Shown: piece by piece, positions 8,419 through 28,742 of the stretch | How the letters are laid out: the number at the start of each line of letters is the position of its first letter | How positions within the stretch are numbered: position 1 is the stretch's first letter | Source: Streptomonospora salina | Lineage (GTDB): Bacteria; Actinomycetota; Actinomycetes; Streptosporangiales; Streptosporangiaceae | Assembly: GCF_014204715.1 (NCBI RefSeq) | Contig: NZ_JACHLY010000001.1 | Location: 2,746,001-2,810,000 of the forward strand | Length of the DNA: 64,000 nt | Reading direction: 5' to 3' | The notes under the pieces: generated by a model | Told to the model about the DNA's origin: nothing | The model's input: only the letters and a program-made list of their open reading frames with translations | Databases searched by the model: none | Translations under genes and position numbers: made by a program

Positions 8419-10514
8419 TGGGAAGCGGAGGGTCCAAGAACCACGAGACCTACAACACGGCACCGACAGCGGCCCCCGCTCACGATCAGTCGGATCCCTC
8501 CCAGGAGGAGTCTCCGCCCGTCAGCGACGAGGCGCTTCCTCTCCTGGACCAAGAGTCGGCGGCCGACGACCCGGGTGGCGCAGCGGGGGAAGAAGCCGGG
8601 GCTGAGGAGGAGCATCCGGCTCCAGAAGAGAACCCGCAGGAAGAGAATTCTCAGGAGACTCCGTCGGACGAACCACTCGCGGAGTCGGCCAGTGACGCGC
8701 TGACTCCGATCCCCGACGCACCGGCGGAAGGAGCGCCAGCCGGGACCCCCGTGCTGGCCGGCGGCGCCGATCTGGTGGACAGCACGGCCACGCTCATCTC
8801 CTATTCCGACCCTGAAGGCGGGCCACCGCGCGAGGTGCTGCTGGCCTCCGTCGACGAGCAGGCCGAAGCCAAGCTCATGGAGGCCCTGGAGCTGCAGAAA
8901 ACAGAACCGATCCACGTGGAGGAGGAAGTCTCCGGGCGCCTTCCGCTGGACGAGGAGAAGCAGCTCTATGAACTCACCGCGAAGGCCGCCAAGAGCGTCA
9001 ACCACAAGCTGAAGACCGGCACCGCAGTCCCCGAACACACGAAGGAGTACCTCGCCCAGGCCCAGGCCGCGGTACAGGAGGTACTCGACTCGCCCTTTGC
9101 CACGGCCGACGAACTGGAGATGGCCGGTTACTACAAGAACTGGCTCGGCAAGGTCGAGCACACCATCGACACAGCTGGAGCGGGAAGCAAGCCCTATGCC
9201 GACGTCAAGATCCCGACGGTGCAGGCGTACGAGCAGCAGGGAACGGCGACAGTAACCGCGATGGTGCCTGCAGAACCCGAGGGGACCGGCCTGCCGACGG
9301 AGTCCCGGACCGCCGGCCGAATCCAGGCCGCCGTCGACGCCGAAAGCGGCACCACGTCGTGGAACGGGTCCGACCGCGTCTCGGCCGAGGGCACCGAGTA
9401 CGCCGTCGACCTCGGCGACGGCTGGAGCGCGGTGTATCGCCCTTACCAGGCCAACGACCCCGCGAAGACGGAGTACTCCCTGCGCGGGCAACTGGAGGTG
9501 CATGCTCCCCAGGGCGCCGGCCACGGAAAGAAGCTGGTCAGCCGCCTCGGCGACCTGAACCTCGTCAACCGCGCGCTCACCGCCAAAGAAGGCGAATGGA
9601 CCTACCTGATGAACAACCTCACCGCCCAGGGCCTGCAGTCCGAACCGCAGGTGAAGACCGCGCTGGGTCAGGCGGAGGAATTGGAGGAGATGCAGCTCCA
9701 AGAGATCTTCCACAGCCAAGCCCACAAGGCGGCCGGCCTCGACGAGCACGGGCTGGCGAAGCTCGCCAAGAGCTGGCAGGTGGAGGCGGCCGCGTCCTGC
9801 CTACCGAGGAAGGTCGCCCTGGTACGTGACGCCGCCGCGAAGGCGGCCGGCTTCGCCGACGGAGGCGAACTCGCCGCGAGCCCCGGCTATGACCCCGTCC
9901 CGCGCTCCTCAGGCGGCTGGCTCACGTGGTCGCGCTGGGACGTCGGAAACAGCGCCGCGATGGAAACGGCATGGAGCGGGAAAAGCCTCACGCACTCCAT
10001 CGGCGCGGGAAGCATGAGCGACCTGCTCGCGACCGGGGTACTGGCCTCCACCGAGCGCCGCAGCGTCATGGGTGTCTCCAGCGACATCGGGATGAGCGAG
10101 AACGCGGACAAGAAGAGCGGCGGCGCCAACTCCGTGTTCACCCGCGTCACGTCCCAGGCCGCGGTCACGCAGTACGGACTCGGCAAAGGCGCCCACCTGG
10201 TCTGGGACGACCCGCCTCGCCTCCTCGACAACACCAGCGTGTACGGCTACCCGAGCGACCACTTCGGCGCGGTGAACCCCAAGGGCAACCACTCCATGCA
10301 CGCCATGACCAAGGACCCGAAGAAGATGGCGGAGTTCACGGCTCACAACAACGAGGTCATGTTCCGCCACGGTCTCGACCTACTCGGAGCGGAAGCGCCC
10401 TCCCGCATCGTCTGCAGCGGGGAGCAGGAGAAGAAGAACGTGGTAGCACTGCTGAACAAGCGGGGCATCACCCACCTCGCCGGTAAACCCATCGACCAGG
10501 TCGTTCAGGCCTAG
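8418..10514 (+). CDS. Large polyvalent-type protein with possible ADP-ribosyltransferase-like C-terminus
   Basis: A 698-residue protein whose ATG overlaps the preceding TGA. It begins GSGGSKNHETYNTAPTA, nearly the same motif as its upstream neighbour. Residues 25-115 are acidic, proline-rich and disordered; 130-500 are mainly helical. The C-terminal 190 residues have the order H526 (SLTHSIGAGSMSDLLATGVL), STERR at 544-548 and a late glutamate E646 (NNEVMFRHGLDLL), which resembles the His...Ser/Arg...Glu layout of DarT/KptA-like ADP-ribosyltransferase folds. That reading is tentative. Together with the kinase-like neighbour it suggests a pair of translocated or host-modifying proteins sharing a targeting tag. 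Confidence 0.5.
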   Translation: MGSGGSKNHETYNTAPTAAPAHDQSDPSQEESPPVSDEALPLLDQESAADDPGGAAGEEAGAEEEHPAPEENPQEENSQETPSDEPLAESASDALTPIPDAPAEGAPAGTPVLAGGADLVDSTATLISYSDPEGGPPREVLLASVDEQAEAKLMEALELQKTEPIHVEEEVSGRLPLDEEKQLYELTAKAAKSVNHKLKTGTAVPEHTKEYLAQAQAAVQEVLDSPFATADELEMAGYYKNWLGKVEHTIDTAGAGSKPYADVKIPTVQAYEQQGTATVTAMVPAEPEGTGLPTESRTAGRIQAAVDAESGTTSWNGSDRVSAEGTEYAVDLGDGWSAVYRPYQANDPAKTEYSLRGQLEVHAPQGAGHGKKLVSRLGDLNLVNRALTAKEGEWTYLMNNLTAQGLQSEPQVKTALGQAEELEEMQLQEIFHSQAHKAAGLDEHGLAKLAKSWQVEAAASCLPRKVALVRDAAAKAAGFADGGELAASPGYDPVPRSSGGWLTWSRWDVGNSAAMETAWSGKSLTHSIGAGSMSDLLATGVLASTERRSVMGVSSDIGMSENADKKSGGANSVFTRVTSQAAVTQYGLGKGAHLVWDDPPRLLDNTSVYGYPSDHFGAVNPKGNHSMHAMTKDPKKMAEFTAHNNEVMFRHGLDLLGAEAPSRIVCSGEQEKKNVVALLNKRGITHLAGKPIDQVVQA

Positions 10515-13090: not shown

Positions 13091-13285
13091 CTACAGCTCC
13101 GCCGACTTCACCGCGCGCATAAACGCCGCCCACTCGGCAGAGGGCAACTCAAGGTGTCCCCCGTCGCGGTCCTTGGTGTCACGCACAGCCGCACCGTTAT
13201 CAGCTGTGTCGGCCACCTCCACGCAGTCACCACCCTTTGAGTTGCTATAGCTACTCTTGCGCCAGGTGTCAGGGTTGACGCTCAC
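13091..13285 (-). CDS. DUF397 family protein
   Basis: A 64-residue protein with the standard DUF397 layout: TWRKSSYSNSKGGDCVEVAD, then VRDTKDRDGGHLELPSAEW and a C-terminal WAAFMRAVK. DUF397 proteins are small partners of Scr1-type XRE regulators in actinomycetes and affect antibiotic production and sporulation; they behave like the toxin-like half of a toxin-antitoxin-type pair. Its GTG start overlaps the stop of the upstream regulator by 4 nt, so the two are translationally coupled. Confidence 0.9.
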   Translation of the reverse strand: MSVNPDTWRKSSYSNSKGGDCVEVADTADNGAAVRDTKDRDGGHLELPSAEWAAFMRAVKSAEL

Positions 13286-14094
13286 TGTAGATCTCCTCGT
13301 GCCTTTCTGATGAGGTCCGCCGACTCCTGGGGAGCGAGGGCGAGCGCCCGCAAGTCCTCAAAGACCTGTGTGTACTCGTTCACATGGTCGGCATCGTCGT
13401 CTGCATCCGCCGAGACACGCGACTCCAGCGCTAGGAAGGTCTCCCGACGCGGCAGCCGCAGCAGCTGAAACGTTCCGTCCAGCCCTGGATGCGGCCCGGC
13501 GTTCATGGGGAGCACCTGCACCGTGATATGAGCATGTCCAGCGGCTGACAGAAGTTGATCAAGCTGTCGGGTCATGATGTCACGGCCCCCGATCGGTCGA
13601 CACAGCACACCTTCCTCTAGTACCACGAACAGCAGCGGCGGGTTTTCTCCCCACAGTAGTTCTTGGCGCTTGAGGCGGGCGTTGACGGCTTGCTGAAGGC
13701 CTGTGGTCGACAAGGACAGGTCGCCCGCACGTAGGGCTAGACGTGCGTAGTCCTCCGTCTGAAGGAGTCCAGGGAGCCAGCCGAGCTGGAACTGGCGGAT
13801 CTCCGCAGCTTGGTGCTGCAACCGCTCCACATCCAGGAACCATGTCGGTGTCCCGGGGTCAGCGTTCGCCTTTCCGACCAGACGCAGTACACGGCCACCT
13901 GTCTGAAGCGCCGTGTCGAGCTCTTCGGCGAATTCCGGCTTGCATCCTCGTATGCCCCGCTCGATCGAACTCAGCATAGCGGGGGACAAGGTCATGAGCT
14001 GGGATAACTGGTCCTGGGACATCCGGTTTGCGCTCCGAAGGCGGCGGATCTCTTGCCCCACCTTGAGCCATTCCGGTTTCGGTTTGATTTGCAT
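13282..14094 (-). CDS. XRE-family regulator, Scr1/DUF5753 type
   Basis: A 270-residue protein. Residues ~9-63 form the helix-turn-helix (GQEIRRLRSANRMSQDQLSQ, then SPAMLSSIERG). The rest is the DUF5753 ligand or partner domain: EIRQFQLGWLPGLLQTEDYA, then LLFVVLEEGVLCRPIGG. The start is ATG 14094 with GGAG 9 bases upstream; an earlier in-frame GTG at 14112 is possible. It pairs with DUF397 and is normally the DNA-binding antitoxin-like half of that system. The upstream region contains repeated TGTCGA half-sites (14095-14130) that could be its own operator. Confidence 0.88.
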   Translation of the reverse strand: MQIKPKPEWLKVGQEIRRLRSANRMSQDQLSQLMTLSPAMLSSIERGIRGCKPEFAEELDTALQTGGRVLRLVGKANADPGTPTWFLDVERLQHQAAEIRQFQLGWLPGLLQTEDYARLALRAGDLSLSTTGLQQAVNARLKRQELLWGENPPLLFVVLEEGVLCRPIGGRDIMTRQLDQLLSAAGHAHITVQVLPMNAGPHPGLDGTFQLLRLPRRETFLALESRVSADADDDADHVNEYTQVFEDLRALALAPQESADLIRKARGDLQ

Positions 14095-14307
14095 AGGTCG
14101 ACACTCCAACACACTTGCTCGACACCTGTCTACACAAGCCGACGGATATCGTCAGTTCCGTGTAACGCCTAGAAACGCGCCACCGGCAAAGGGATCGTAG
14201 ACAGCGCTCGCCGCCGACATGCGGAGTGCACAAAAAACGGCCCTGCCGGTGCGCAGAACACCAGGCAGAGCCTTGATCCCCGACCTGAAGAAGCCAGGTG
14301 GAGACCC

Positions 14308-16426: not shown

Positions 16427-16690
16427 CTACTGGGACCAGGGCAGCAAGCGATCGAGGACGCGCCACGCCGCATCCCGACGATCGGCCTTGCTCGACCAGA
16501 CCGCAGGCACAACGATGCCGACGAAAAGCAGCAGCGCCACCCCAGCGAGCACCCATCCGGCTCCTGGCACGTGACGTAGCAGCGGCTCAGCTAGGGACAC
16601 CAGGGGCGGGGCGCCCGCCATGTCCAGGACCTCGTTCGGCGTGTCGCTCCTGACATGTTCAAGCCCAGGTGGAGCGTCTACGATAGGCAT
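16427..16690 (-). CDS. Small single-pass membrane protein between CRISPR loci
   Basis: An 87-residue protein starting at ATG 16690 with AAGGAAG 7 bases upstream, a good ribosome-binding site. One hydrophobic segment, GWVLAGVALLLFVGIVVP at about residues 45-62, is followed by KADRR, so the C-terminus should be cytoplasmic. I do not recognise a family. It is transcribed away from cas3 and lies between the decayed array and the pseudo-repeat element. It could be an accessory of the CRISPR locus or unrelated. Confidence 0.5.
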   Translation of the reverse strand: MPIVDAPPGLEHVRSDTPNEVLDMAGAPPLVSLAEPLLRHVPGAGWVLAGVALLLFVGIVVPAVWSSKADRRDAAWRVLDRLLPWSQ

Positions 16691-16732
16691 TATCGACTTC
16701 CTTTCTTGTTAACGGGCGGAAGTTGTTTGCGA

Positions 16733-16760
16733 GCGGCCTCCCGGTGCAACGGGGGGCCGC
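16733..16760. repeat. GC-rich hairpin upstream of the small membrane protein
   Basis: GCGGCCTCCC (16733-16742) pairs with GGGGGGCCGC (16751-16760) with one mismatch. GTTGTTTGC occurs on both sides (16722-16730 and 16762-16770). It could be a terminator or leader structure for minus-strand transcription into the gene starting at 16690. Confidence 0.4.
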
Positions 16761-16905
16761 TGTTGTTTGCGGTGGAGGCCCAGTCGCCCCACCAGCGCAA
16801 GCGGCGTAGGCCGCTCGCTGGCCACGTAGGCCAGGGCGCAGGGCGGACTGAGACAGGGTGACGATAGCACGCATGGTACTGCTGTGTGGGCCTCTCGGTC
16901 GGTTA

Positions 16906-16937
16906 CATGAGAGGTGCGTAGTGAGTGAATCTAGACC
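16906..16937 (-). promoter_or_regulatory. Partial protospacer-like target of the upstream mini-array guide
   Basis: Read on the minus strand from 16937, this site matches the pseudo-spacer 17064-17095 at 22 of 32 positions. Positions 1-7 (GGTCTAG) match exactly. The ten mismatches are at 8, 9, 12, 16, 18, 24 and 29-32; positions 12, 18, 24 and 30 are ones that type I-E Cascade flips out and does not read. The minus-strand base triplet before the match is AAC, close to the usual I-E PAM AAG. The site overlaps the ribosome-binding site and first codons of a mini-ORF. Confidence 0.6.
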
Positions 16938-16965
16938 GTTCAGCGGGTTGGTGAGAGAAGCGTAA
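16921..16965 (+). CDS. Candidate 14-codon mini-ORF under guide control (CreT-like or leader peptide)
   Basis: GTG at 16921 follows GAGAGGT (16909-16915) at 5-6 bases, a strong ribosome-binding site, and reads VSESRPFSGLVREA before TAA. It uses AGA at codons 5 and 12, which is very rare at this GC content, and the following bases to 16980 are AGA-rich. A hairpin CCCGAG/CTCGGG with a T-rich loop at 16987-17008 could end a small RNA. In known CreTA modules the repressed partner is a small RNA whose mini-ORF traps a rare arginine tRNA. The similarity is suggestive only. Confidence 0.3.
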   Translation: MSESRPFSGLVREA

Positions 16966-17034
16966 GAGAGAGAAGCAAGACCGTTGCCCGAGTTTGAGTT
17001 TTCTCGGGTATGGTGATCACTGCGAACGAAGTTC

Positions 17035-17124
17035 TCGCTCCCTTCGCATGGAGGGATGACCCCGGTCTAGCGTCGCTCTCGACGCAACTCTTGCAGTGCT
17101 CCCCGCGCCTGCGGGGATCGATCG
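17035..17124 (+). CRISPR. Degenerate two-repeat mini-array upstream of cas3, candidate regulatory guide RNA
   Basis: A 29-nt pseudo-repeat at 17035-17063 matches the CRISPR consensus at 21 positions. A better one at 17096-17124 differs mainly in the loop and the 3' tail. They are exactly 61 nt apart, enclosing a 32-nt pseudo-spacer. In the first pseudo-repeat two hairpin pairs have changed on both sides: pair 9-18 from C-G to T-A, and pair 10-17 from G-C to T-G. Stem pairing therefore survives, which argues for selection on the RNA. The spacer partly matches 16906-16937. Such features define creA/creR-type guides. Confidence 0.65.
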
Positions 17125-17126
17125 CG

Positions 17127-17183
17127 GGTGGACGGTTCGGAGGGCGGCGGTTTGGCCTGTCTGCCCTCCGGCCCGCATCCACC
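17127..17183 (+). repeat. Two-part stem-loop between the mini-array and cas3
   Basis: GGTGGA (17127-17132) pairs with TCCACC (17178-17183), and GGAGGGC (17139-17145) pairs with GCCCTCC (17163-17169). It begins directly after the second pseudo-repeat and ends 50 bases before cas3, so it could terminate the guide RNA or attenuate cas transcription. Confidence 0.5.
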
Positions 17184-17232
17184 GAGTTATCGGAGCACTA
17201 AATTTCCCGTTCTGCCTGCCATGGGAGGTCTC

Positions 17233-20184
17233 ATGCGATTGACTTCTCCCATGGACTCCGAGGGCTCCCCCCTGCCTTGGCCCGACAGGCTGTCCGCAGC
17301 CGCGCGCGCCGTGTGGGCCAAGCACGATCACGACTTCGACGGCTGGCTTCCGCTGTGGCGGCACATGGCCGACAGTGCCGCCGTTGCGGGGCGGCTGTGG
17401 GACGAATGGGTGCCCGACCAGGTCCGTCGGCTGGTGTCGGCCGAGCTGCCCGGCGGCGCCGACGACGCGCGCCGACTGGCGGTGTGGCTGGCCGCGGTCC
17501 ACGACATCGGCAAGGCGACGCCGGCCTTCGCTTGCCAGGTCGAAGGCCTCGCCGACCGGATGCGCAGCGAAGGTCTGGAAATGCGGCTGCAGAAGCAGAT
17601 CCCCGACCGCAACCTCGCCCCGCACGGACTGGCCGGCCAGCTGCTGCTGCAGGAATGGCTCATCGAGCGACACGGCTGGCCCAAACCGGCCACGCTCCAG
17701 CTGTCGGTGGTCGTCGGCGGCCACCACGGCATTCCGCCGACCCAGGCGCAGATCCACGAGCTGATACGGCACCGGTCGCTGCTGCGGACCCGCGGCAGCG
17801 AGGACGCCTGGCGCAGCGTCCAGCACGAACTCCTCGACGCCGCCGCGCAGACCTGCGCCGTTCACGATCGCCTGCCCCTCTGGCGGGAGGTGAAGCTGCC
17901 GCAACCGGTGCAGGCGCTGCTGACCGCCGTGGTGATCATGGCCGACTGGATCGCCAGCAACCCGGAATTGTTCCCGTACTTCCCCGGAGAACGCGGCAGC
18001 GACCCCGAACGCGTCGACGCGGCCTGGCAGGGCCTGAACCTGCCGCGCCCCTGGGCCGCGGACGAGCCCGAGGCCGAGCCCGGCGCCCACGTCGCCGCGC
18101 GCTTCGACCTGCCGGCCGGCGCCCGGATCCGCCCGGTGCAGGAAGCCGCGGTGGCCGCAGCCCGCGACATGGCCGCACCGGGCCTGATGGTGATCGAGGC
18201 GCCGATGGGAGAGGGCAAGACCGAGGCCGCCCTGGCCGTCGCGGAGGTCTTCGCGGCCCGTTCCGGCGCCGGCGGCTGCTTCATCGCGCTGCCCACGATG
18301 GCCACCGGCAACGCCATGTTCCCCCGCCTGCTCGACTGGCTCGACCACCTGCCCGACACCCGTGAGGGAACCGGTGCGCACTCCGTGTTCCTCGCCCACT
18401 CCAAGGCCGCGCTCAACGAGGACTTCGCCGAGCTGATGCGCGCCGGACGCCGCTCCCTGGCCGGCATCGACCGCGACGGCGGCGCCGACACGTGGCAGCC
18501 CCGCACCGACGCCCAGGCCGCCTCAGCCGAGCTGGTCGCCCACCACTGGCTGCGCGGCCGCAAGAAGGGGATGCTGTCCTCCTTCGCCGTCGGCACCATC
18601 GATCAGCTGCTCTTCGCCGGGCTCAAGAGCCGCCATCTGGCGCTGCGCCACCTCGCCCTGGCGGGCAAAGTCGTGGTGATCGACGAGGCCCACGCCTACG
18701 ACACCTACATGAACGCTTATCTCGACCGGGTCCTGTCCTGGCTGGGCGCCTACCGGGTGCCGGTCGTGGTGCTCTCGGCCACGCTGCCGTCGCGCAGGCG
18801 CCGTGAGCTCGCCCATGCCTATGCCGGAGCCCAAGCCACCGACACCGGCTTCGCCGGCGTTCAGGCGGCACAGGCCTATCCCCTCATCACCGCCGTCGCC
18901 CCGGGCGGCCTTCCCCGGGTGTCGGCCCCCGAGGCCTCCGGCCGCGGCACCGCGGTGCACGTGGAGCGTCTCGACGACGACTTCGACCACCTGACCGACC
19001 GGTTGGAAACCGAACTCGAGGACGGCGGGTGCGTCCTGGTGGTGCGCAACACCGTGCGCCGCGTCGTGGAGACCGCGGCGCATCTGCGCACACGCTTCGG
19101 CGATGAGCAGGTCACCGTCGCCCACGCCCGCTTCCTTGATCCGGATCGCGCCGACAACGACGCCGGGCTGCTCGCCGAATTCGGCTCCCCCGACTACGTC
19201 GCGAAACACGGCGGCGCCCGCCCCGAGCGGCGGATCGTGGTCGCCAGCCAGGTGGCCGAGCAGTCCCTGGACGTCGACTTCGACCTGCTGGTCAGCGACC
19301 TGGCCCCGATCGACCTGCTGCTGCAGCGCATGGGCCGCCTGCACCGCCACCGGCGCGGCGCGGACCAGAGCGAGCGCCCGCCGCGGCTGCGCAGGGCCCG
19401 CTGCCTGATCACCGGAGCCGACTGGGACGCGCCTGTGCCCGAGCCCGACCCTGGCTCCCGCCGCGTCTACCGCACCTATCCCCTCCTGCGGTCGGCGGCC
19501 GCCCTCGAGCCCTACCTCGCCCGGACGGACGGGACCGGGAACGCGCTGCGCCTGCCCGAGGACATCAGCCCCCTCGTGCAGCGCGCCTACGGCGACGAGG
19601 AGATCGGCCCTGCGGAGTGGGGCGAAGCCATGGGCAAGGCGCGCGCCGACCACGAAAAACACCAGGCCGAGCAGCACGCCAAGGCCGACGCGTTCCTGCT
19701 CAACCCGCAGGCGCGCCCCGGCCGGGCCCTGGTGGGCTGGGTCGATGCCGGCGTCGGCGACGCCGACGACACCCGCCGCGGCAAAGCCCAAGTCCGCGAC
19801 ACCGAGGAGACCCTCGAAGTCCTGGTCGTGCAGCGGCGCCCCGACGGCGCCCTGGCCACGGTGCCCTGGCTGAGCCCCGACCGCCACGGCCGCGCCCGCG
19901 GCGGCCTGGAACTGCCCACCGACACCGCCCCCGATCACCGGCGCGCACGCATCGTGGCCGCCTGCGGGCTCCGCCTGCCGCCCGAGTTCTCCAACGCCCG
20001 CACCCTGGATCGGGCCATCGCCGAACTCGAGGAGCAGTGCGTGCCCGGCTGGCAGAGCAAGGAGGCCTATTGGCTCGCCGGCGAGCTGGTCCTCGTCCTG
20101 GACGAGGAATGTCATAGCAGCCTGGCAGGCTACGAACTCCGCTACACCCGGTCCGACGGTCTCGAGGTCCACCGTGCCGAATGA
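17233..20184 (+). CDS. cas3: Type I-E Cas3 nuclease-helicase
   Basis: A 983-residue protein. ATG 17233 was chosen because GGGAGG ends four bases before it; earlier in-frame starts lie in the hairpin. The N-terminal HD nuclease has HMADSAAVAG and H90-D91 (VHDIGK), with further histidines near 137-165. The SF2 helicase follows: Walker A GEGKT (K329), DEAH at 484-487, VLSATLP, and motif VI QRMGRLHRH. It degrades DNA marked by Cascade. Its stop overlaps the cas8e start by 11 nt, opening a tightly packed eight-gene operon. Control by the upstream mini-array is proposed. Confidence 0.97.
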   Translation: MRLTSPMDSEGSPLPWPDRLSAAARAVWAKHDHDFDGWLPLWRHMADSAAVAGRLWDEWVPDQVRRLVSAELPGGADDARRLAVWLAAVHDIGKATPAFACQVEGLADRMRSEGLEMRLQKQIPDRNLAPHGLAGQLLLQEWLIERHGWPKPATLQLSVVVGGHHGIPPTQAQIHELIRHRSLLRTRGSEDAWRSVQHELLDAAAQTCAVHDRLPLWREVKLPQPVQALLTAVVIMADWIASNPELFPYFPGERGSDPERVDAAWQGLNLPRPWAADEPEAEPGAHVAARFDLPAGARIRPVQEAAVAAARDMAAPGLMVIEAPMGEGKTEAALAVAEVFAARSGAGGCFIALPTMATGNAMFPRLLDWLDHLPDTREGTGAHSVFLAHSKAALNEDFAELMRAGRRSLAGIDRDGGADTWQPRTDAQAASAELVAHHWLRGRKKGMLSSFAVGTIDQLLFAGLKSRHLALRHLALAGKVVVIDEAHAYDTYMNAYLDRVLSWLGAYRVPVVVLSATLPSRRRRELAHAYAGAQATDTGFAGVQAAQAYPLITAVAPGGLPRVSAPEASGRGTAVHVERLDDDFDHLTDRLETELEDGGCVLVVRNTVRRVVETAAHLRTRFGDEQVTVAHARFLDPDRADNDAGLLAEFGSPDYVAKHGGARPERRIVVASQVAEQSLDVDFDLLVSDLAPIDLLLQRMGRLHRHRRGADQSERPPRLRRARCLITGADWDAPVPEPDPGSRRVYRTYPLLRSAAALEPYLARTDGTGNALRLPEDISPLVQRAYGDEEIGPAEWGEAMGKARADHEKHQAEQHAKADAFLLNPQARPGRALVGWVDAGVGDADDTRRGKAQVRDTEETLEVLVVQRRPDGALATVPWLSPDRHGRARGGLELPTDTAPDHRRARIVAACGLRLPPEFSNARTLDRAIAELEEQCVPGWQSKEAYWLAGELVLVLDEECHSSLAGYELRYTRSDGLEVHRAE

Positions 20185-21826
20185 CGCCCCCCGACCCTCC
20201 TTCGATCTGACCACGCGACCGTGGATCCCCGTGCAGCGGCTCGACGGCACCGAGCAAGAACTGTCGCTGCACGACCTCCTCCAGCACACCGCGTCACTGC
20301 GCCGGATCGTCGGCGACGTCCCCACCCAGGAGTTCGCCCTGGTGCGGCTCGTTCTGGCGATCGTCCACGACGCCGTCGACGGGCCGACGGACACAGACGA
20401 ATGGTCTCAGTACCGGGAGGACGGACTGCCCGCCGAGGTGTTGTCGGCCTACCTGGACGAACACCGCGACCGCTTCGACCTGCTGCACCCGCAGACGCCC
20501 TTCTTCCAGGTCGCCGACCTGCGCACGGCCAAAGACGAGGTCTTCTCCCTCGACCGGATCGTGGCCGACGTGCCCAACGGCGACCCGTTCTTCACCATGC
20601 GGGCCCGCGGCGTCGACCGGCTCGGCTTCGCCGAGGCCGCCCGCTGGGTCGTCCATGCCCACGCCTTCGACCCCTCCGGCATCAAATCCGGCGCGGTGGG
20701 CGACCCCCGCGTCAAAGGCGGCAAGGGCTACCCCCAGGGCGTGGGGTGGGCCGGCAACCTCGGCGGGGTCCTGGCCGAGGGCGCCACACTGCAGGAGACA
20801 CTGCTGCTCAACCTGGTCGCCGCCGATGTCGACAACCTGCGCATCGACGCCGACGACCGCCCCGCCTGGCGCCGCGACCCCGCCGGCGCCGCCCCCGCCG
20901 AGGACACGGAGCTGGCCGCGCGCCCCACCGGGGTCCGCGACCTCTACACCTGGCAGAGCCGCCGCCTGCGGCTCCAGTACGACGCCGACGGCGTCTACGG
21001 AGCGCTGCTGGCCTACGGCGACCCGCTGCCGGCACGCAACATGCACAACCGCGAACCCATGACCGCCTGGCGGCGCAGCCCCGCCCAGGAGAAGAAGCAC
21101 AGCCTGGCCCAGGTGTACCTGCCGCGCGAGCACGACCCCGCCCGCAGCGCCTGGCGCGGCTTGGCGGCCCTGGTCACCGGCCGGGTCACCGGCGGTGAAC
21201 AACGCCAAGAGGCCGCGGCCCTTGTACGGCCGCGCATCCTCGACTGGGTCGCGCGGCTGGCCAACGAAGGATTCCTGGAAGCCGACCACCCCATCCGACC
21301 CCGCCTGTTCGGCGCCGTCTACGGCACCCAGCAGTCGGTCATCGACGAGATCGTCGACGACGGCGTCGCCATGGCCGTGGTCCTCCTGCACGAGCGCGAC
21401 GACGGACTCGGGCAGACCGCGGTCGATGCGGTCAACGACGCCGAGAAGGCCGTGACCGTCCTGGGCGATCTCGCCCAGCGCCTGGCTCAAGCGGCCGGAG
21501 CCGAATCCGACGGCCCGCGCGCGACGGCCCGCGACCTCGGCTTCGCCGAACTCGACGGCCCCTTCCGCGACTGGCTGGCCGCGATCGCGCCCGGCGACGA
21601 GCCCGAAGACAAGCACACCGAGTGGCAGCACCGCGCCCGCCGACACATCCGCGACCTCGGCAAGCAGTTGGTCGACCAGGCAGGCGACGCGGCCTGGACC
21701 GGACGCCTCATCGAAACCAAGCAGAACACCTTCTGGCTCACGGCGGGCGGCGCCGACCTGCGTTTCCGCGCCGACCTGAACAAGGCGCTGCCCATGACCG
21801 CCCCGGCAGACAAGGAATCAGCGTGA
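20174..21826 (+). CDS. cas8e: Cascade large subunit Cas8e (Cse1/CasA)
   Basis: A 550-residue protein with the Cse1 opening FDLTTRPWIPV and SLHDLL, and the family segments FALVRLVLAIVHDA, LLHPQTPFFQV and GNLGGVLAEGATLQETLLLNL. A four-helix bundle forms the C-terminal third. Cse1 reads the PAM, starts unwinding of the target and recruits Cas3. The length is usual for actinobacterial members (500-570 residues). It overlaps cas3 by 11 nt and cse2 by 4 nt. Confidence 0.95.
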   Translation: MPNDAPRPSFDLTTRPWIPVQRLDGTEQELSLHDLLQHTASLRRIVGDVPTQEFALVRLVLAIVHDAVDGPTDTDEWSQYREDGLPAEVLSAYLDEHRDRFDLLHPQTPFFQVADLRTAKDEVFSLDRIVADVPNGDPFFTMRARGVDRLGFAEAARWVVHAHAFDPSGIKSGAVGDPRVKGGKGYPQGVGWAGNLGGVLAEGATLQETLLLNLVAADVDNLRIDADDRPAWRRDPAGAAPAEDTELAARPTGVRDLYTWQSRRLRLQYDADGVYGALLAYGDPLPARNMHNREPMTAWRRSPAQEKKHSLAQVYLPREHDPARSAWRGLAALVTGRVTGGEQRQEAAALVRPRILDWVARLANEGFLEADHPIRPRLFGAVYGTQQSVIDEIVDDGVAMAVVLLHERDDGLGQTAVDAVNDAEKAVTVLGDLAQRLAQAAGAESDGPRATARDLGFAELDGPFRDWLAAIAPGDEPEDKHTEWQHRARRHIRDLGKQLVDQAGDAAWTGRLIETKQNTFWLTAGGADLRFRADLNKALPMTAPADKESA

Positions 21827-22491
21827 CTACGACGGCCCCCAAGCACGTACCGGATCTGCAGTGGGTCGGCGCCTTCGTCGACGAGCGCGTCCGCGAGATC
21901 CAATACGGCTACCTGCAGGACCGCTCCGATGCTGTGGCCACCCTCGCGCAGCTGCGGCGCGGCGCCGGGAAGACCGTCGCCGAGGTCCCCGAGCTGTGGG
22001 GGCTGACGCTGGACGACCGGTTCTACACCCGGGCACCCCGTGTTCCCGACGCGGACACCGGGGGCGACCCGGCCGAGGAAGCCGCCCACGTCGCGCTGAC
22101 GCTCTATGGCGTGCACCAGCAGTCGCGCCGCGAGGACCGCATGCACCAGCGCGGACGCGACCTCGGTGGTGCCGTGCGACGGCTGATGCCGCCCGGCGAC
22201 ATCGACGAACCGGTGCGCCGCCGGTTCGTCCAGGCCGGTACCGCCCACGACCTCCCCAGCCTCGCCTACCGGCTGCGCGAGATCGTCGTGCTGCTGCGCC
22301 GCGAGGCCGTGGCTCTGGACTACGGCCTGCTGGCCGACCGGATCCACCGGTTCCAGCAGCCCGGTGGCCGCACCACGGTCCGCGCGGCATGGGGTCGGGC
22401 CTTCCACGCCGCCTCCGCCGCGGCCGTCCCCGCCGACGCCTCCGCACCCCCTGATGACACCACTCCCGAGACCGACGAGGACCACGCATGA
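21823..22491 (+). CDS. cse2: Cascade small subunit Cse2 (CasB, Cas11)
   Basis: A 222-residue helical protein. The start is GTG 21823, overlapping the cas8e stop (GTGA); longer upstream readings are out of register with the operon layout. It shows the Cse2 pattern LAQLRRGAGKTVAEVPELWG and ALTLYGVHQQSRREDRMHQRG, then RRFVQAGTAHDLPSLAYRLREIV. Two copies line the belly of Cascade and stabilise the R-loop. It overlaps cas7e by 4 nt. Confidence 0.93.
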   Translation: MTTTAPKHVPDLQWVGAFVDERVREIQYGYLQDRSDAVATLAQLRRGAGKTVAEVPELWGLTLDDRFYTRAPRVPDADTGGDPAEEAAHVALTLYGVHQQSRREDRMHQRGRDLGGAVRRLMPPGDIDEPVRRRFVQAGTAHDLPSLAYRLREIVVLLRREAVALDYGLLADRIHRFQQPGGRTTVRAAWGRAFHAASAAAVPADASAPPDDTTPETDEDHA

Positions 22492-23669
22492 GCCGCACCA
22501 TCCTGGACCTGCACGTGCTCCAGACCGTGCCGCCCAGCAACATCAACCGCGACGACACCGGCGCCCCTAAAACCGCGGTCTACGGCGGTGCGCGCCGGTC
22601 CCGCGTCTCCAGCCAGGCCTGGAAGCGCGCCACCCGCATGGCCTTCGACGACCTGCTCGACGCCGGCGAACTGGGTGTGCGCACCAAACGGGTCGCCGAA
22701 CTGCTGACCGTGCGCATCCAGAACATCGACACCGCGATCGAGGAGCGTGAAGCCTGGACCCTGGCCGCCGAGACCGTCCAGGCCGCCACCGGCTCCAAGA
22801 TCGACGTCCCCAAACGCAAGGCGGAGGCGGCCAAGAAGAACGGCCAACCGGAGCCGGCTCCCGAGTCCGCCTACCTGATGTTCCTCAGCGCCCGCCAGCT
22901 CGACGCCCTCGCCGAGCTCGCCGTCGAAGGCCGCGCCGACATCAAGGCCTTCCTCAAGGACAACAAGAAGCGCGCCAAGGAGCTCGCCGACACCCGCCAC
23001 TCCGTCGACATCGCCCTGTTCGGCCGCATGGTCGCCGACGGCGCCGACGTCAACGTCGACGCCGCCGCCCAGGTCGCCCACGCCATCAGCGTGCACCCGG
23101 TGGAGAACGAATCCGACTACTACACCGCCGTCGACGACGAGAACCCTGACGAGGAGACCGGCGCGGGCATGATCGGCACGGTGGAGTTCAACTCCGCCAC
23201 CCTGTACCGCTACGCCGCCCTGGACGCCGACCTGCTGCGCCGCAACCTGGGGGAGGGGCTGCGCGAGGACGAGCCGGTCACCCAGCCGCTGCGCCGCGCC
23301 GTGGAGGCCTTCGTGCGCGGGTTCGTCGAATCCCTTCCCACCGGCAAGGTCAACACCTTCGGCAACCACACGCTGCCTGAGGCGGTGATCGTGAAGCTGC
23401 GCCGCACGCGTCCGGTTAGCTTCGTCGGCGCCTTCGAGGAACCGGTCGCGCCGGGCGACGGCCACGTGCGCAAAGCCAGCGAGCGCCTGGCCGACTACGT
23501 CGGCCAGGTCGAGGCGGCCTACGGCCTCGCCGACGATACCGAGACCTGGGTGCTGCGGGTGGGGCCCAGCACGGCCGACCTCGCCGATCTGGGCACCGAG
23601 CTGCCTCTGGCCGAGTTGGTCACCGCCGTCGGTACCGCCACGGCCGAGCGGTCGGCGCCCACCGCATGA
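22488..23669 (+). CDS. cas7e: Cascade backbone subunit Cas7e (Cse4/CasC)
   Basis: A 393-residue RAMP protein. The N-terminus is diagnostic: LDLHVLQTVPPSNINRDDTG, then GGARRSRVSSQAWKRATR. A lysine-rich insertion (KRKAEAAKKNGQ) and FNSATLYRYAALD follow. Six copies form the backbone along the crRNA, and their thumbs flip out every sixth base, the spacing that the mini-array mismatches follow. It sits between cse2 and cas5e with 4-nt overlaps on both sides. Confidence 0.96.
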   Translation: MSRTILDLHVLQTVPPSNINRDDTGAPKTAVYGGARRSRVSSQAWKRATRMAFDDLLDAGELGVRTKRVAELLTVRIQNIDTAIEEREAWTLAAETVQAATGSKIDVPKRKAEAAKKNGQPEPAPESAYLMFLSARQLDALAELAVEGRADIKAFLKDNKKRAKELADTRHSVDIALFGRMVADGADVNVDAAAQVAHAISVHPVENESDYYTAVDDENPDEETGAGMIGTVEFNSATLYRYAALDADLLRRNLGEGLREDEPVTQPLRRAVEAFVRGFVESLPTGKVNTFGNHTLPEAVIVKLRRTRPVSFVGAFEEPVAPGDGHVRKASERLADYVGQVEAAYGLADDTETWVLRVGPSTADLADLGTELPLAELVTAVGTATAERSAPTA

Positions 23670-24379
23670 GTGCCCTGATGCTCCAGCTGGCCGGTCCCCT
23701 GCAAGCGTGGGGATCGGCGGCCCGCTTCGCCCGGCGCACCACCGAGAACGCCCCCACCAAGAGCGGGGTGATCGGACTGCTGGCCGCAGCCCAGGGCCGC
23801 GATCGCACCCAGGACCTGTCGGATCTGACCGCGCTGGATTTCGGGGTGCGTATCGACCAGCCCGGCACCCGCGTGCGCGATTACCAGACCGCCCACCACC
23901 TCGACACGGACCGGTCCATGCCCGTCTCCGAGCGGTTCTACCTGGCCGACGCCGTGTTCGTCGCCGCGGTGGCAGGCGACGACGCGCTCATCGACCGGCT
24001 CCATGAGGCGGTGCGGGCACCGGTCTACCTGCCGTATCTGGGGCGGCGCTCGTGCCCGCCGGCACGGCCCGTCGACCTGGGCCTGCGCAGCGGAACCGGT
24101 GTGCACGAGGCGCTCGAATCCGAGGAATGGCGGGCCTCGACCTGGTACCAGCGCCGTCTGCGGCGGGAGGCCGCGGTATCCCTGCCGCTCCTGGTCGACG
24201 CCGTTGCCGGCGACACCCGCGCCGACAGCCGGCGCGACACCCCGCTGAGCTTCGATCCGCTCCACCGCCGCTACGCCCTGCGCGGCGTGCGCACCCACAC
24301 GGTCGAGGTCGCCAACCCGTGGGCCCGAGGACCCGCGGCCCCCGAACACGATCCGACCAGCCTGCTGGGAGGCGACTGA
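23666..24379 (+). CDS. cas5e: Cascade subunit Cas5e (CasD)
   Basis: A 237-residue RAMP protein. It opens with ALMLQLAGPLQAWGSAARFA and TKSGVIGLLAAAQGR, the hallmark of Cas5e, followed by GVRIDQPGTRVRDYQTAHHL and a C-terminal glycine-rich strand. It binds the 5' handle of the crRNA at the foot of Cascade. Its last base is the first base of the cas6e start codon. Confidence 0.95.
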   Translation: MSALMLQLAGPLQAWGSAARFARRTTENAPTKSGVIGLLAAAQGRDRTQDLSDLTALDFGVRIDQPGTRVRDYQTAHHLDTDRSMPVSERFYLADAVFVAAVAGDDALIDRLHEAVRAPVYLPYLGRRSCPPARPVDLGLRSGTGVHEALESEEWRASTWYQRRLRREAAVSLPLLVDAVAGDTRADSRRDTPLSFDPLHRRYALRGVRTHTVEVANPWARGPAAPEHDPTSLLGGD

Positions 24380-25101
24380 TGCACCTCACCCGGTTCCGCC
24401 TCAACACCGCACGCAGCGGAGCGCGCCGGCTGCTGTCGTCACCGCGCACCATGCACGCCGCGGTGATGAACGCGTTCCCCGACGTACTGCCCACCGACAC
24501 CGACACCCCCCGTGTGCTGTGGCGGGTGGACCGCAACGCCAAAGCCGAAGTGTTCCTCTACATCGTCAGCCCCGCCAAGCCCGACCTGACGCACGTGGTG
24601 GAACAGGCCGGTTGGAAGGAGCGGCCCAACTGGCAGACCTACGACTACGGCCCGTTCCTGGAGCGGCTGGCCGAGGGCCACACGTGGGCGTTTCGCCTCA
24701 CCGCCAACCCCGTGCACAGCATCCGCCGCAAAGACGGCGAACCCACCAAGGTCACCGCCCACGTCACCCCGCGCCACCAGGCGCAATGGCTGCTGCAGCG
24801 CCAAGAGGCGGCCGGCTTCCGCGTGCTGGAGAAACCGGAGGATCAGCGCCTGCTGCCCGAGGGCGACGAGCACGAGCTCCTCGTGCACGACCGCCGCAGC
24901 AACGCGTTCGACAAGCCCGAGCACCAGCCGGCAGCCACGGCGAACGGGAAGAGGAAGAACCGGGTCTCCCTGGTCACCGCGACCTTCGACGGGCGGCTGG
25001 AGGTCGTCGATCCCGAGGCGCTGCGCCGCACCCTCACCCGAGGACTCGGGCGGGCCAAGGCCTACGGGTGCGGACTGATGACCCTCGCCCCGGCGGAATG
25101 A
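24379..25101 (+). CDS. cas6e: crRNA-processing endonuclease Cas6e (CasE/Cse3)
   Basis: A 240-residue protein starting at ATG 24379, overlapping the cas5e stop by one base. It has the two ferredoxin-like folds of Cas6e. The probable catalytic histidine is in RTMHAAVMNAFP near residue 26, and the glycine-rich loop is GLGRAKAYGCGLMTLAP at the C-terminus. It cuts each repeat 3' of its hairpin and stays bound to it. The well-paired hairpin kept in the pseudo-repeats upstream of cas3 should still be a substrate. Confidence 0.95.
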   Translation: MHLTRFRLNTARSGARRLLSSPRTMHAAVMNAFPDVLPTDTDTPRVLWRVDRNAKAEVFLYIVSPAKPDLTHVVEQAGWKERPNWQTYDYGPFLERLAEGHTWAFRLTANPVHSIRRKDGEPTKVTAHVTPRHQAQWLLQRQEAAGFRVLEKPEDQRLLPEGDEHELLVHDRRSNAFDKPEHQPAATANGKRKNRVSLVTATFDGRLEVVDPEALRRTLTRGLGRAKAYGCGLMTLAPAE

Positions 25102-25111
25102 GAGGGACCCC

Positions 25112-26065
25112 ATGGCCACGGCCGGCAGGCGCAGCGCCTCCACACCCCGCGAGCTGACCCGCGTCGCAGACCGACTCTCCTTCGTCTACCTGGAGCGGTG
25201 CACGGTACACCGCGACGCCAACGCCATCACCGCCGAGGACGGCGACGGCATCACCCACATCCCCTCGGCCACCATCGGCACCCTGCTGCTGGGCCCCGGA
25301 ACGCGGGTCACCCACCAGGCCATGAGCGTGCTCGGCGAGTGCGGCGCCGGCGTGGTGTGGGTAGGCGAGCGGGGCGTGCGCTTCTACGCGGGCGGCCGGT
25401 CGCTGACCCGCTCCGCCGCGCTGGTCGAAGCCCAAGCGCGGGCCTGGGCGAACCGGGTGACGCGCCTGGAGGTGGCGCGCGCCATGTACCGGATGCGCTT
25501 TCCCGACGAGGACACGGCCGGGCTGACCCGCCAGCAGCTCCTGGGGCGGGAAGGCAAGCGGGTCAAAGAGTTCTACCGCAAAGACGCCGCACGCGTGGGC
25601 ATGCGCTGGACGGGGCGGCACTACGTCCCCGGCGATTTCGACGCCGGGGACCCGCTCAACCAAGGCGTGACCGCGGCCGCCCAATGCCTCTACGGCGTCT
25701 GCCACGCGGTGGTGGCCGCCCTGGGATGCGCCCCCGGGCTCGGCTTCGTCCACTCCGGCCACGAACTCGCCTTCGTGCTGGACGTGGCCGACCTGTACAA
25801 GACCGAGATCGGGATCCCGGTCGCCTTCGACACCGCGGCCCAAAGCCCCGAGGACGTCGGCCCACGCACCCGCCGCGCCCTGCGGGACCGCATCAACGAC
25901 ACCGGGTTTCTGGACCGCTGCGTGGGCGACGTGCAGGGCCTGCTCCTACCGGACGGCGCGGAGGGCGATGCGGCCGATGCCACGGTCGACCACGTCGGCC
26001 TGCAGACCGACCGCGGCGGCGAAGTGGAATCCGGACGCAACTACGCCGACGGAGTCATCTGGTGA
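25112..26065 (+). CDS. cas1e: Spacer-integration nuclease Cas1, I-E type
   Basis: A 317-residue protein. The beta-rich N-domain ends near residue 85. The catalytic helical domain has the expected glutamate in LLGREGKRVKEFY and the histidine and aspartate in GFVHSGHELAFVLDVADLYK. The tail after about residue 285 is variable. It forms the Cas1-Cas2 integrase that adds new spacers next to the leader. A 10-nt gap follows cas6e and a GTGA overlap links it to cas2. Confidence 0.96.
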   Translation: MATAGRRSASTPRELTRVADRLSFVYLERCTVHRDANAITAEDGDGITHIPSATIGTLLLGPGTRVTHQAMSVLGECGAGVVWVGERGVRFYAGGRSLTRSAALVEAQARAWANRVTRLEVARAMYRMRFPDEDTAGLTRQQLLGREGKRVKEFYRKDAARVGMRWTGRHYVPGDFDAGDPLNQGVTAAAQCLYGVCHAVVAALGCAPGLGFVHSGHELAFVLDVADLYKTEIGIPVAFDTAAQSPEDVGPRTRRALRDRINDTGFLDRCVGDVQGLLLPDGAEGDAADATVDHVGLQTDRGGEVESGRNYADGVIW

Positions 26066-26502: not shown

Positions 26503-28610
26503 GTGCTCCCCGCGCACGCGGGGATGGTCCCGGATCATGGTCAATCTCCCAGGTGAAATCGGTGTGCTCCCCGCGCACGCGGGGATGGTCCCCTGCTCGC
26601 GTTCCGCGGCGTGGAGGCGATCCGGTGCTCCCCGCGCACGCGGGGATGGTCCCAACGAGACCGACGCATGGTCGCGCGAGCACACGTGCTCCCCGCGCAC
26701 GCGGGGATGGTCCCTGCCGGGCCTGTTCGTCCCCTTGGACGTCAAGGTGCTCCCCGCGCACGCGGGGATGGTCCCTGCGGCCGACGGATCGAGCTTGCCG
26801 AGTTCACGTGCTCCCCGCGCACGCGGGGATGGTCCCGTCTCCGACGCCTCCGCCTGCGTGTCGTCCTCGTGCTCCCCGCGCACGCGGGGATGGTCCCTGC
26901 CGGGCAACGCCTCGGCCGAGGAGCTGCAGGTGCTCCCCGCGCACGCGGGGATGGTCCCGCCTGGCTACGCAGAGCAGCCGGGCGCCAGTAGGTGCTCCCC
27001 GCGCACGCGGGGATGGTCCCGGCGCTTGCCGCAGGTCGACGTGCGGCGGCGCGTGCTCCCCGCGCACGCGGGGATGGTCCCGAGGCCGCGCTCAACTCGC
27101 TGGCCACCGTGGTGTGCTCCCCGCGCACGCGGGGATGGTCCCGGCGCGTCTCGGTCGTATCGGACGGTGACGTGGTGCTCCCCGCGCACGCGGGGATGGT
27201 CCCGACTACGAGGATGTGAAGGTCAACGAGTGGCGGTGCTCCCCGCGCACGCGGGGATGGTCCCCGCTCCAGCCTGGCGAGGGTGTTGGGGGCGGCGTGC
27301 TCCCCGCGCACGCGGGGATGGTCCCATGACCAACCGCACCAGCGCGCCCCGCCGCGAGTGCTCCCCGCGCACGCGGGGATGGTCCCCGGCCGGACACGTG
27401 CCAGAACACGCCCCCGGCGTGCTCCCCGCGCACGCGGGGATGGTCCCCCCGACGGCCCCGCCCACTGGCTGCGTAAGAGGTGCTCCCCGCGCACGCGGGG
27501 ATGGTCCCGCGTCCTCGGGAGTGCGGCAGCTCATGCCGCCGGTGCTCCCCGCGCACGCGGGGATGGTCCCACATACCGGTAGACCGGCACGCGCGACCCC
27601 CTGTGCTCCCCGCGCACGCGGGGATGGTCCCGTGCAGACCGTCCTGGGCAGCGGGAGGCGCCGGTGCTCCCCGCGCACGCGGGGATGGTCCCCAGGAGTA
27701 TCCGACGTCGTCCCACCCGCGGTCGTGCTCCCCGCGCACGCGGGGATGGTCCCTGGAGCCAGCGGATCGGCTGCCGGGTCTGCCGGTGCTCCCCGCGCAC
27801 GCGGGGATGGTCCCGACGACCCCGAGATCCCGGTGCGCACGACGGTGTGCTCCCCGCGCACGCGGGGATGGTCCTCACCCCGCCATCGTGCGGGGTTTTC
27901 GCATGTCGTGCTCCCCGCGCACGCGGGGATGGTCCCCGGGCGACTTCAACGAGTTCGTGGCTCCCGCCGTGCTCCCCGCGCACGCGGGGATGGTCCCAGC
28001 GCTGGCGGCTGCGCACCGCCCTGTACCGCGTGCTCCCCGCGCACGCGGGGATGGTCCCATGGGCGCGCTCGTGATCATGGACTTTCCCGAGTGCTCCCCG
28101 CGCACGCGGGGATGGTCCCGGCCGGACCATCGACCTGATCAGCATCGGCATGTGCTCCCCGCGCACGCGGGGATGGTCCCCACTGAACCGCCCCGCTCGT
28201 CGGCCCCCGGCGGTGCTCCCCGCGCACGCGGGGATGGTCCAACCTTGCCCGCCTGCCGGGTGGTGGCCGCGGCGTGACTCCCCGCGCACGCGGGGATGGT
28301 CCCGAGGAGGTGGACCAGCCGTGCTGACTCTGGCCGTGCTCCCCGCGCACGCGGGGATGGTCCCCCCTTGCGTTCCCACGTTCGGGTCAACTTCCCGTGC
28401 TCCCCGCGCACGCGGGGATGGTCCCCCCGCATACCCGCTGATGGCGCCGTGGTTCGGGTGCTCCCCGCGCACGCGGGGATGGTCCCACGTCGTCCCGGCT
28501 CGAATTCGAGGGGACGTTGTGCTCCCCGCGCACGCGGGATGGTCCATGACCAAATTGCATGTGAAAATCTATGGCAGAAAAGTGCTCCCCGCGCACGCGG
28601 GGATGGTCCG
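26503..28610 (+). CRISPR. Main type I-E CRISPR array, 35 repeats and 34 spacers
   Basis: Repeats of 29 nt start every 61 nt from 26503, with two spacers of 33 nt (before 26992 and 27542) and the rest mostly 32. The core palindrome is CCCCGCGCACGCGGGG. Repeats 1-28 are nearly invariant. Repeat 23 (27847) ends TCCT, 29 (28213) has lost its last C, 30 (28274) has an extra A, 34 (28519) lacks one G and 35 (28582) ends CCG, so decay is confined mainly to the distal end. The leader is on the left. Confidence 0.99.
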
Positions 28611-28742
28611 ATTCTCCCGGTCACCGTCGTAGTTGGTTGTTGCGCCGCCCTTCGCTTGTTTGGAAGGGCCGACTGCTTGCGCCTGCCGAAATCGGAGCGG
28701 ACCCTGCCGACCATCTAGTAGCACTTGTCAAGGACGTCCACG

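What the first reader, a model, noticed from the sequence alone, without database searches (positions are those of the whole stretch)
16903..17232. CreTA/CreR-like element: pseudo-CRISPR guide partly matching a site upstream of its own locus and cas3
Seen: two degenerate repeats at 17035 and 17096, exactly 61 nt apart, enclose a 32-nt pseudo-spacer. In the first, hairpin pair 9-18 changed from C-G to T-A and pair 10-17 from G-C to T-G, so the stem is kept by paired changes. The pseudo-spacer matches the minus strand of 16906-16937 at 22 of 32 positions with the first seven perfect; four of ten mismatches are at 12, 18, 24 and 30, bases that Cascade does not read. The PAM-side triplet is AAC. 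The target covers the ribosome-binding site of a 14-codon ORF with two rare AGA codons, followed by AGA-rich sequence and a hairpin. Known: CreA/CreR guides use pseudo-repeats and partial seed matches to repress a toxin RNA or cas promoter. Inference: this is a type I-E actinobacterial version that silences a small RNA and/or the cas operon.
Basis: partly seen in the sequence, partly recalled or inferred. Interest (0 to 1): 0.95.

Follow-up and report, generated by a model that had tools for sequence, protein, structure and literature searches.

The report
CRISPR mini-guide silencing a membrane-protein gene
Beside its CRISPR genes this actinobacterium carries a two-repeat mini-CRISPR whose guide matches two sites in front of a small gene predicted to encode a membrane protein, and 16 other loci show the same kind of guide-target pair, so the CRISPR complex likely silences that gene, which would be a toxin guarding the CRISPR system.

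Summary
Two degenerate repeats (17035, 17096) enclose a 32-nt spacer matching 16906-16937 (minus) at 22 of 32 positions, with AAC on the PAM side. One of 20,000 shuffled spacers gives an AAC site this good.

Comparison shows a family. The 22 target sites kept, in 17 type I-E loci, all carry AAC, although a phage protospacer of this system's array and the Streptomyces avermitilis I-E system use AAG. Seed positions match, but positions 6 and 12, which I-E Cascade does not read, mismatch in 17 and 16 of 22 sites. Guides and targets change together between sister loci. Guides tried on other loci give 0 AAC hits in 262 pairs.

In all 16 loci where I identified a neighbouring ORF, the protospacer is on its coding strand, whichever way the mini-CRISPR or cas3 runs. 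In 12 the ORF encodes a 59-87-aa hydrophobic protein; in the window it is 16427-16690 (minus). Best reading: a CreA-type antitoxin RNA repressing a protein gene, closest to CrePA, not an AGA RNA toxin and probably not mainly cas autorepression. Transcription, repression and toxicity are untested.

The parts
17035..17063 (+). degenerate repeat 1 of the mini-CRISPR (would supply the 5' handle; reads ATGACCCC)
   Evidence: 20 of 29 to array consensus, stem kept by paired changes
17064..17095 (+). 32-nt guide (pseudo-spacer) of the creA-like gene
   Evidence: guides of the same kind in 16 other loci
17096..17124 (+). degenerate repeat 2 (3' hairpin)
   Evidence: 23 of 29 to consensus; lies about where L005, L009 and L011, which have full arrays, have their last, degenerate repeat
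16906..16937 (-). target site T1; AAC PAM is the complement of 16938-16940
   Evidence: 22 of 32; 12 of 15 read positions among 1-17
   Evidence: 14 of 15 read positions among 1-17, 15 of 32 overall
16427..16690 (-). 87-aa ORF with one predicted transmembrane segment and an AAAGGAAG ribosome-binding site; inferred regulated gene (candidate toxin)
   Evidence: T1 and T2 lie on its coding strand, 247 and 292 nt upstream of its start
16732..16761 (-). hairpin in the presumed 5' leader of the 87-aa ORF (also reads as a terminator-like site on the plus strand)
   Evidence: similar hairpins read by eye in L048, L052 and L149
16984..17014 (+). possible weak promoter of the mini-CRISPR (TTGCCC, 19 nt, TATGGT), read by eye; its -35 overlaps the T2 PAM
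   Evidence: sequence; the consensus scan found no sigma-70 promoter
17251..20184 (+). cas3; likely start at 17251, where the ATG of L048 aligns
   Evidence: NCBIfam Cas3 models; relatives
20174..26065 (+). rest of the type I-E cas operon: cse1, cse2, cas7, cas5e, cas6e, cas1e
   Evidence: cas2 was not recovered in the frames tested
26503..28730 (+). main canonical CRISPR array (right end approximate)

Best explanation
The locus is a creA-like two-repeat mini-CRISPR whose guide would be loaded into the neighbouring type I-E Cascade and likely represses a small gene predicted to encode a membrane protein (16427-16690, minus strand) by binding two partly matching sites, T1 and T2, upstream of it. 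Steps: (1) a short transcript of 17035-17124 is predicted to be cut by Cas6e, because both stems are kept (inferred). (2) Cascade with this guide would bind T1 and T2 through AAC PAMs and read-position seed matches (match pattern shown; binding inferred). (3) The limited match and the AAC PAM, which replaces the system's AAG, would allow binding without Cas3 cleavage (inferred). (4) Transcription towards the 87-aa ORF, and possibly from the mini-CRISPR's own promoter beside T2, would be blocked (inferred). (5) If Cascade is lost or blocked by an anti-CRISPR protein, the membrane protein would be made and would harm or arrest the cell, so the module would guard the CRISPR system (inferred, by analogy with CreTA and CrePA).
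For: (a) AAC at all 22 sites kept, in 17 loci. The ranking did not use the PAM and gave AAC as best hit in seven loci. Of 23 seed hits of the 17 guides in their own loci, 21 carry AAC; 0 of 262 guide/foreign-locus pairs give an AAC hit. (b) Mismatches at unread positions 6 (17 of 22) and 12 (16 of 22), against 0 of 22 at 1, 2, 4, 5, 7 and 11. (c) Guide and target co-vary at read seed positions in four of five sister pairs: 3; 5, 10, 11 (not 9); 5, 7, 10 (8 with the second site); 1, 11; the fifth pair has identical guides. (d) The protospacer is on the coding strand of a downstream ORF in 16 of the 16 loci located, distance to the start 21-94 nt in 12 loci and 204-292 nt in 4, the window among them. 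Without hand-picking: starts of hydrophobic ORFs with a Shine-Dalgarno motif within 320 nt lie on the coding strand in 11 of 17 loci and on the opposite strand in 1. (e) Canonical PAM AAG from a phage protospacer of this array and from S. avermitilis (PMC4762764, passages). (f) The I-E effector genes are present.
Against: The window's ORF is atypical: its targets lie 247 and 292 nt upstream, a word-based search of 5.8 billion proteins found only itself, and its C-terminal half belongs to a small-protein family found in 34 of 341 genomes, itself included, with no repeat cluster beside the nine copies looked at. No promoter was recognised. T2 could repress the mini-CRISPR's own promoter. The 17 loci were partly selected for AAC and seed match, so counts at read positions are biased upwards; positions 6 and 12 were not selected. 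Beyond the seed, guide differences between sisters are mostly not matched in the target. The 16 ORFs were chosen by me; L052 also has a hydrophobic ORF on the other strand and L084 an overlapping one. L150's ORF is below the hydrophobicity threshold, L073 and L157 are frame-broken, L072 is not a membrane protein. L071 has a unit and a similar reading frame but no AAC target; L149 a unit, a shortened ORF and no good target; L016 targets but no clear ORF. The same-genus genomes G002 and G005 have an array instead. No RNA or toxicity data.
Confidence: 0.6

Rival explanations
1. CreR-type autorepression: the guide represses the promoter that drives the mini-CRISPR itself and, by read-through, cas3.
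For: T2 lies directly upstream of the mini-CRISPR and its PAM overlaps a possible -35 box. In L048 and L052 a TATGCT or TATAAT sequence directly follows the PAM in the cas direction (read by eye). CreR is reported for type I-E (PMC13131331, one passage).
Against: Target orientation follows the small ORF, not cas3. In L049 and L066 the mini-CRISPR points away from cas3. In L070, L157, L164 and L166 the small ORF separates the target from the mini-CRISPR.
Confidence: 0.22
2. Relic: the end of a decayed array whose last spacer happens to resemble upstream DNA, with no present function.
For: Repeat 2 lies about where L005, L009 and L011 have the terminal degenerate repeat of a full array; same-genus genomes G002 and G005 have full arrays there.
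Against: Two AAC sites, 1 of 20,000 shuffles; repeat 1 stem kept by paired changes; the same pattern in 16 other loci.
Confidence: 0.1
3. CreTA with an RNA toxin: the guide silences a small RNA with a 14-codon AGA-containing ORF (16921-16965).
For: The ORF exists, has a Shine-Dalgarno motif and overlaps T1; CreT RNAs use AGA codons in Haloarcula (PMC8501985, passages).
Against: One of the two AGA codons and the AGA-rich stretch lie in T2, so the guide match explains them. The two AGA codons are not consecutive. The ORF runs on the strand opposite to the protospacer, and no other of the 17 loci has such a mini-ORF near its target.
Confidence: 0.04

Closest known systems
CrePA (CreA RNA with protein toxin CreP)
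   Same: A crRNA-like RNA guides the CRISPR effector to the region in front of a protein gene; toxicity would be released when the effector fails (review PMC12737573, section 10 read).
   Different: The review describes CreP as typically a KilA-N protein; here the neighbouring genes are mostly small hydrophobic proteins and, in L072, a weak DUF3800-like protein. Toxicity is untested.
CreTA (CreA RNA with RNA toxin CreT)
   Same: Two-pseudo-repeat creA, short seed match, module inside the cas locus (PMC8501985, abstract and passages).
   Different: The neighbouring gene codes for a protein; the AGA mini-ORF is better explained as target sequence. No actinobacterial or I-E CreTA appeared in the passages seen.
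CreR (cas-regulating RNA), reported for types I-B, I-E and V-A
   Same: Mini-CRISPR guide with limited match near cas genes (PMC13131331, one passage; PMC12737573, passages).
   Different: Targets track a small protein gene rather than the cas promoter. The original CreR paper was not seen; it is known to me from these reviews and recall.
Canonical type I-E CRISPR array
   Same: 29-nt repeats, 32-nt spacer, 61-nt period, same strand as the cas genes.
   Different: Both repeats degenerate, self-target with AAC instead of AAG, only a partial match; some relatives have guides of about 20 nt.

Membership tests
CrePA/CreTA creA gene | two divergent repeat-like sequences that keep the Cas6-type stem | tested here: met
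CrePA/CreTA creA gene | guide with seed-limited match to a nearby target next to a usable PAM | tested here: met
   two AAC sites in the window; 22 sites in 17 loci. That AAC is usable is not tested.
CrePA | target in the promoter or 5' region of an adjacent protein gene | tested here: inconclusive
   position and strand fit in 16 of 16 loci located and in 11 against 1 without hand-picking; promoters not identified; window distances 247 and 292 nt
CrePA | the protein is toxic | not testable with these tools
   no assay; the candidates are uncharacterised
CrePA | KilA-N toxin, described as typical | tested here: not met
   Pfam gives no match above cut-off for the five small ORFs tested, and for L072 only DUF3800 at E 0.016, below cut-off
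CreTA | toxin is a small RNA (CreT) that sequesters a rare tRNA or blocks translation | tested here: inconclusive
   one AGA codon overlaps T2; no similar mini-ORF near the targets of the other 16 loci; RNA not assayed
CreR | target in the cas operon promoter | tested here: inconclusive
   T2 is beside the mini-CRISPR promoter region in the window, but family-wide orientation follows the small ORF
type I-E CRISPR-Cas | cse1, cse2, cas7, cas5e, cas6e, cas3, cas1e | tested here: met
CreA/CreR | mature RNA bound to Cascade | not testable with these tools
   needs small-RNA sequencing

The most novel reading that the evidence does not exclude
A family of CRISPR guard modules in type I-E actinobacteria: 20- or 32-nt self-guides, locked to an AAC PAM that would permit Cascade binding but not destruction, hold in check interchangeable protein toxins (small membrane proteins, and in one genome a DUF3800-like protein), so that losing or inhibiting Cascade would trigger membrane damage or growth arrest.
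Probability: 0.45. Interest if true: 0.87.

Novelty: new variant of a known kind. Interest (0 to 1): 0.76.

Why it matters
It would extend CRISPR-guarding toxin-antitoxin modules to the type I-E systems of Actinobacteria, with uncharacterised small membrane proteins as the likely toxins. The constant AAC (against AAG for immunity) and the free positions 6 and 12 give a natural record of which bases Cascade reads when it regulates instead of cutting. The pattern is a simple search rule for finding such modules in genomes, and it makes the AAC binding-without-cleavage idea directly testable.

Tried and rejected
Rejected: the AGA RNA toxin (one AGA codon and the AGA-rich stretch coincide with T2; no such mini-ORF near the targets of the other 16 loci). 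Rejected: an ordinary self-targeting spacer (no AAG PAM, partial match). Weakened: cas autorepression as the main role (strand rule).

Led nowhere: a Gordonia phage hit for a spacer of L004 was not a real protospacer (no seed match). The AAC status in E. coli I-E was not found by text search in PMC6568314, while PMC8482600 lists AAC as an I-E PAM for Bifidobacterium (passage), so AAC may be functional in other systems. The sigma-70 scan found no promoter. The gene neighbourhoods of the window ORF's paralogues were listed as ORFs in two cases and not named. Second spacers in L016 and L079 gave no convincing target. Of the 22 AAC hits, three were dropped: L024, L025 (repeat 1 only 13 of 29) and an array spacer of L070 at -1178. 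Seven of the 29 loci (L026-L032) were scanned for repeats only and not for targets.

Literature: the searches in the held library (listings and starts of abstracts seen) showed no report of an actinobacterial I-E CreA module or of small membrane-protein partners; the original CreTA, CreR and CrePA papers did not appear in them.

Full report
Setting. The window is part of a 5.6-Mb genome, probably a Streptomonospora: the same-genus genome G005 has a contig of 723,971 bases, the length of the Streptomonospora sp. PA3 contig. It holds a type I-E cas operon starting with cas3 at about 17251 and several canonical arrays with the repeat GTGCTCCCCGCGCACGCGGGGATGGTCCC.

Observation. Repeat 1 keeps a 7-bp stem despite nine differences from the consensus. 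The guide matches T1 (minus 16906-16937) at 22 of 32 positions; 5 of 3000 dinucleotide-shuffled spacers reach 22 of 32 within 800 bp and 0 of 3000 do so with a perfect 7-nt seed. A scan that ignores every sixth position found a second site T2 (minus 16951-16982), also after AAC, matching at positions 1-5, 7, 8, 10, 11 and 13-17. Counting the 15 read positions among 1-17, T2 scores 14 and T1 scores 12; the next best of 17 AAC sites in the 602 bp upstream scores 7, and 1 of 20,000 shuffles reaches 14. T2 contains the second AGA codon and the AGA-rich stretch on which the RNA-toxin idea rested.

Relatives. I collected the DNA upstream of cas3 orthologues: 29 loci from named genomes (22 of them used for target scans) and the loci of the family census, in which 73 of 341 genomes have a match at E 1e-200 or better (sequences), with seven class-level loci outside the family. 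Ninety-seven upstream regions went into the scan; some are the same locus from two collections (for example L016 and L077). In the ranking, which did not use the PAM, ten mini-CRISPR units were examined: the best seed match carried AAC in L043 (the window), L048, L052, L070, L072 and one unit of L016, and the match with most identities did so in L073; L016's other unit, L025 and L079's second spacer gave nothing. The open scan on both strands with spacers of 18-34 nt gave 330 seed hits; AAC was the commonest PAM with 22 (next GGT with 15) and revealed guides of 20-21 nt in L049, L066, L079, L082, L112, L164 and L166. L084 came, L157 and L150. Of the 22 AAC hits I dropped three as weak or chance (L024, L025, L070 at -1178), kept L150, the only one outside the family, with this warning, and added T1 and the two L016 sites: 22 sites in 17 loci. 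Sixteen of the 73 family genomes with an orthologous cas3 thus carry the pattern.

Recognition logic. In the 22 sites, mismatches fall on position 6 (17) and 12 (16), while positions 1, 2, 4, 5, 7 and 11 never mismatch and positions 3, 8, 9 and 10 do so in 2, 2, 5 and 1. That type I-E Cascade flips out every sixth base is established knowledge (recalled). The selection required matches at read positions, so their conservation is partly built in; the freedom at 6 and 12 was not selected for. A guide copied recently from its target would match there too, so the read bases appear maintained by use. Sister loci support this: where guides differ at read seed positions, the targets differ in the same way in L048/L052 (position 3), L070/L157 (5, 10, 11; not 9), L049/L066 (5, 7, 10, and 8 with the second site) and L112/L082 (1, 11). 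The fifth pair, L164/L166, has identical guides, and beyond the seed most guide differences are not matched in the target. Guides searched in other loci give no AAC hit in 262 pairs, sister pairs excluded.

PAM. The array spacer at 28243 matches the terminase gene of Streptomyces phage Chymera with AAG at the PAM, and AAG is the experimental PAM of the S. avermitilis I-E system (PMC4762764, passages). The self-targets kept use AAC without exception. I infer that AAC lets Cascade bind with little or no cleavage; this is untested, and PMC8482600 lists AAC as an I-E PAM in Bifidobacterium.

What is regulated. In 16 loci I could place an ORF downstream of the target, and in 16 of 16 the protospacer lies on its coding strand, whether the ORF runs with cas3 (L049, L066, L070, L157, L164, L166, L150) or against it (the other nine, the window included). 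A 17th script entry, L025, was not located, and L016 has no clear ORF. Position 1 of the protospacer is 21-94 nt from the start codon (nearest site 21-74) in 12 loci and 204-292 nt in the window, L048, L052 and L150. These ORFs were chosen by me, so I repeated the test mechanically: hydrophobic ORFs of 40-130 aa with a Shine-Dalgarno motif that start within 320 nt of the first-listed site lie on the coding strand in 11 of 17 loci and on the opposite strand in 1 (L052, which has both). The 11 are L043, L048, L049, L052, L066, L070, L079, L084, L112, L164 and L166; L082 has a similar 67-aa ORF without the motif. L150's 49-aa ORF scores below the hydrophobicity threshold (1.03 against 1.45). L073 and L157 carry a related reading frame that is broken at a C7 tract just after the start (read by eye). 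L072 has a 197-aa DUF3800-like protein instead (E 0.016, below the Pfam cut-off). A profile of eleven of the small proteins finds 15 proteins in 5.8 billion at E 0.001 or better, among 7994 scored candidates; some are the input proteins themselves, the window ORF included, none has a Pfam domain, and those with a name are called hypothetical.

The window ORF. The 87-aa protein (16427-16690, minus) has one predicted transmembrane segment. The protein search returned only itself, from 12 candidates. It resembles the 49-aa ORF of L150 (39 per cent identity by the aligner's count, many gaps), and shares its C-terminal half with small proteins in 34 of 341 genomes, itself included; the nine such stretches I looked at show at most one repeat-like sequence. 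Its membership in the CRISPR-linked set therefore rests on position and on the two targets. A strong hairpin lies in its presumed leader; L048, L052 and L149 have hairpins in a similar place (read by eye).

Interpretation. The most economical account of these loci is a CreA-type guide repressing a small protein gene, that is, a CRISPR-guarded toxin-antitoxin module closest to CrePA (PMC12737573, section 10 read), whose described toxin is a KilA-N protein. Toxicity is inferred from the analogy, from the small hydrophobic character and from the two broken and one shortened ORFs (L073, L157, L149). Autorepression of the mini-CRISPR and cas3 remains possible in addition, above all in the window, L048 and L052, where a site adjoins the mini-CRISPR promoter region. 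The position of repeat 2 suggests that the module arose from the end of an array.

Limits. No expression data; promoters not recognised; the module is absent from the two other same-genus genomes with a close cas3 (G002, G005); L071 and L149 have units without a good target.

Noticed in passing
L073 and L157, about 300-490 bases upstream of cas3: The small hydrophobic frame is broken at a run of seven C just after the start codon in both loci; could be inactivation, phase variation or a sequencing error.
   Followed up: partly
L072, 275-956 bases upstream of cas3, minus strand: A DUF3800-like protein replaces the small membrane protein in front of the same kind of AAC target, which suggests exchangeable partner genes.
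   Followed up: partly
L149/L172 (G418, same genus as L150): The small ORF is shortened relative to L150 and the guide has no good local target, as if both had decayed together.
   Followed up: partly
L049, L066, L079, L082, L112, L164, L166: Guides of 20-21 nt instead of 32 between the two degenerate repeats.
   Followed up: partly
window 28243-28274: Array spacer matching the large terminase gene of Streptomyces phage Chymera, PAM AAG.
   Followed up: yes
window 16732-16761: Strong hairpin in the presumed leader of the 87-aa ORF; hairpins also in L048, L052 and L149.
   Followed up: partly
window 13282-14112, minus strand: Helix-turn-helix regulator with DUF5753, between two CRISPR arrays.
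   Followed up: no
G000 C1 2435592-2435756 (L182): Second protein in the same genome like the C-terminal half of the 87-aa ORF, away from CRISPR; family motif PAVWS-K-RR-AA-VLDRLL.
   Followed up: partly
window 5950-10514: Two large ORFs (822 and 698 aa) next to an array with no Pfam match at E 0.001; the first has a weak PADLOC PDC-M03A hit.
   Followed up: no
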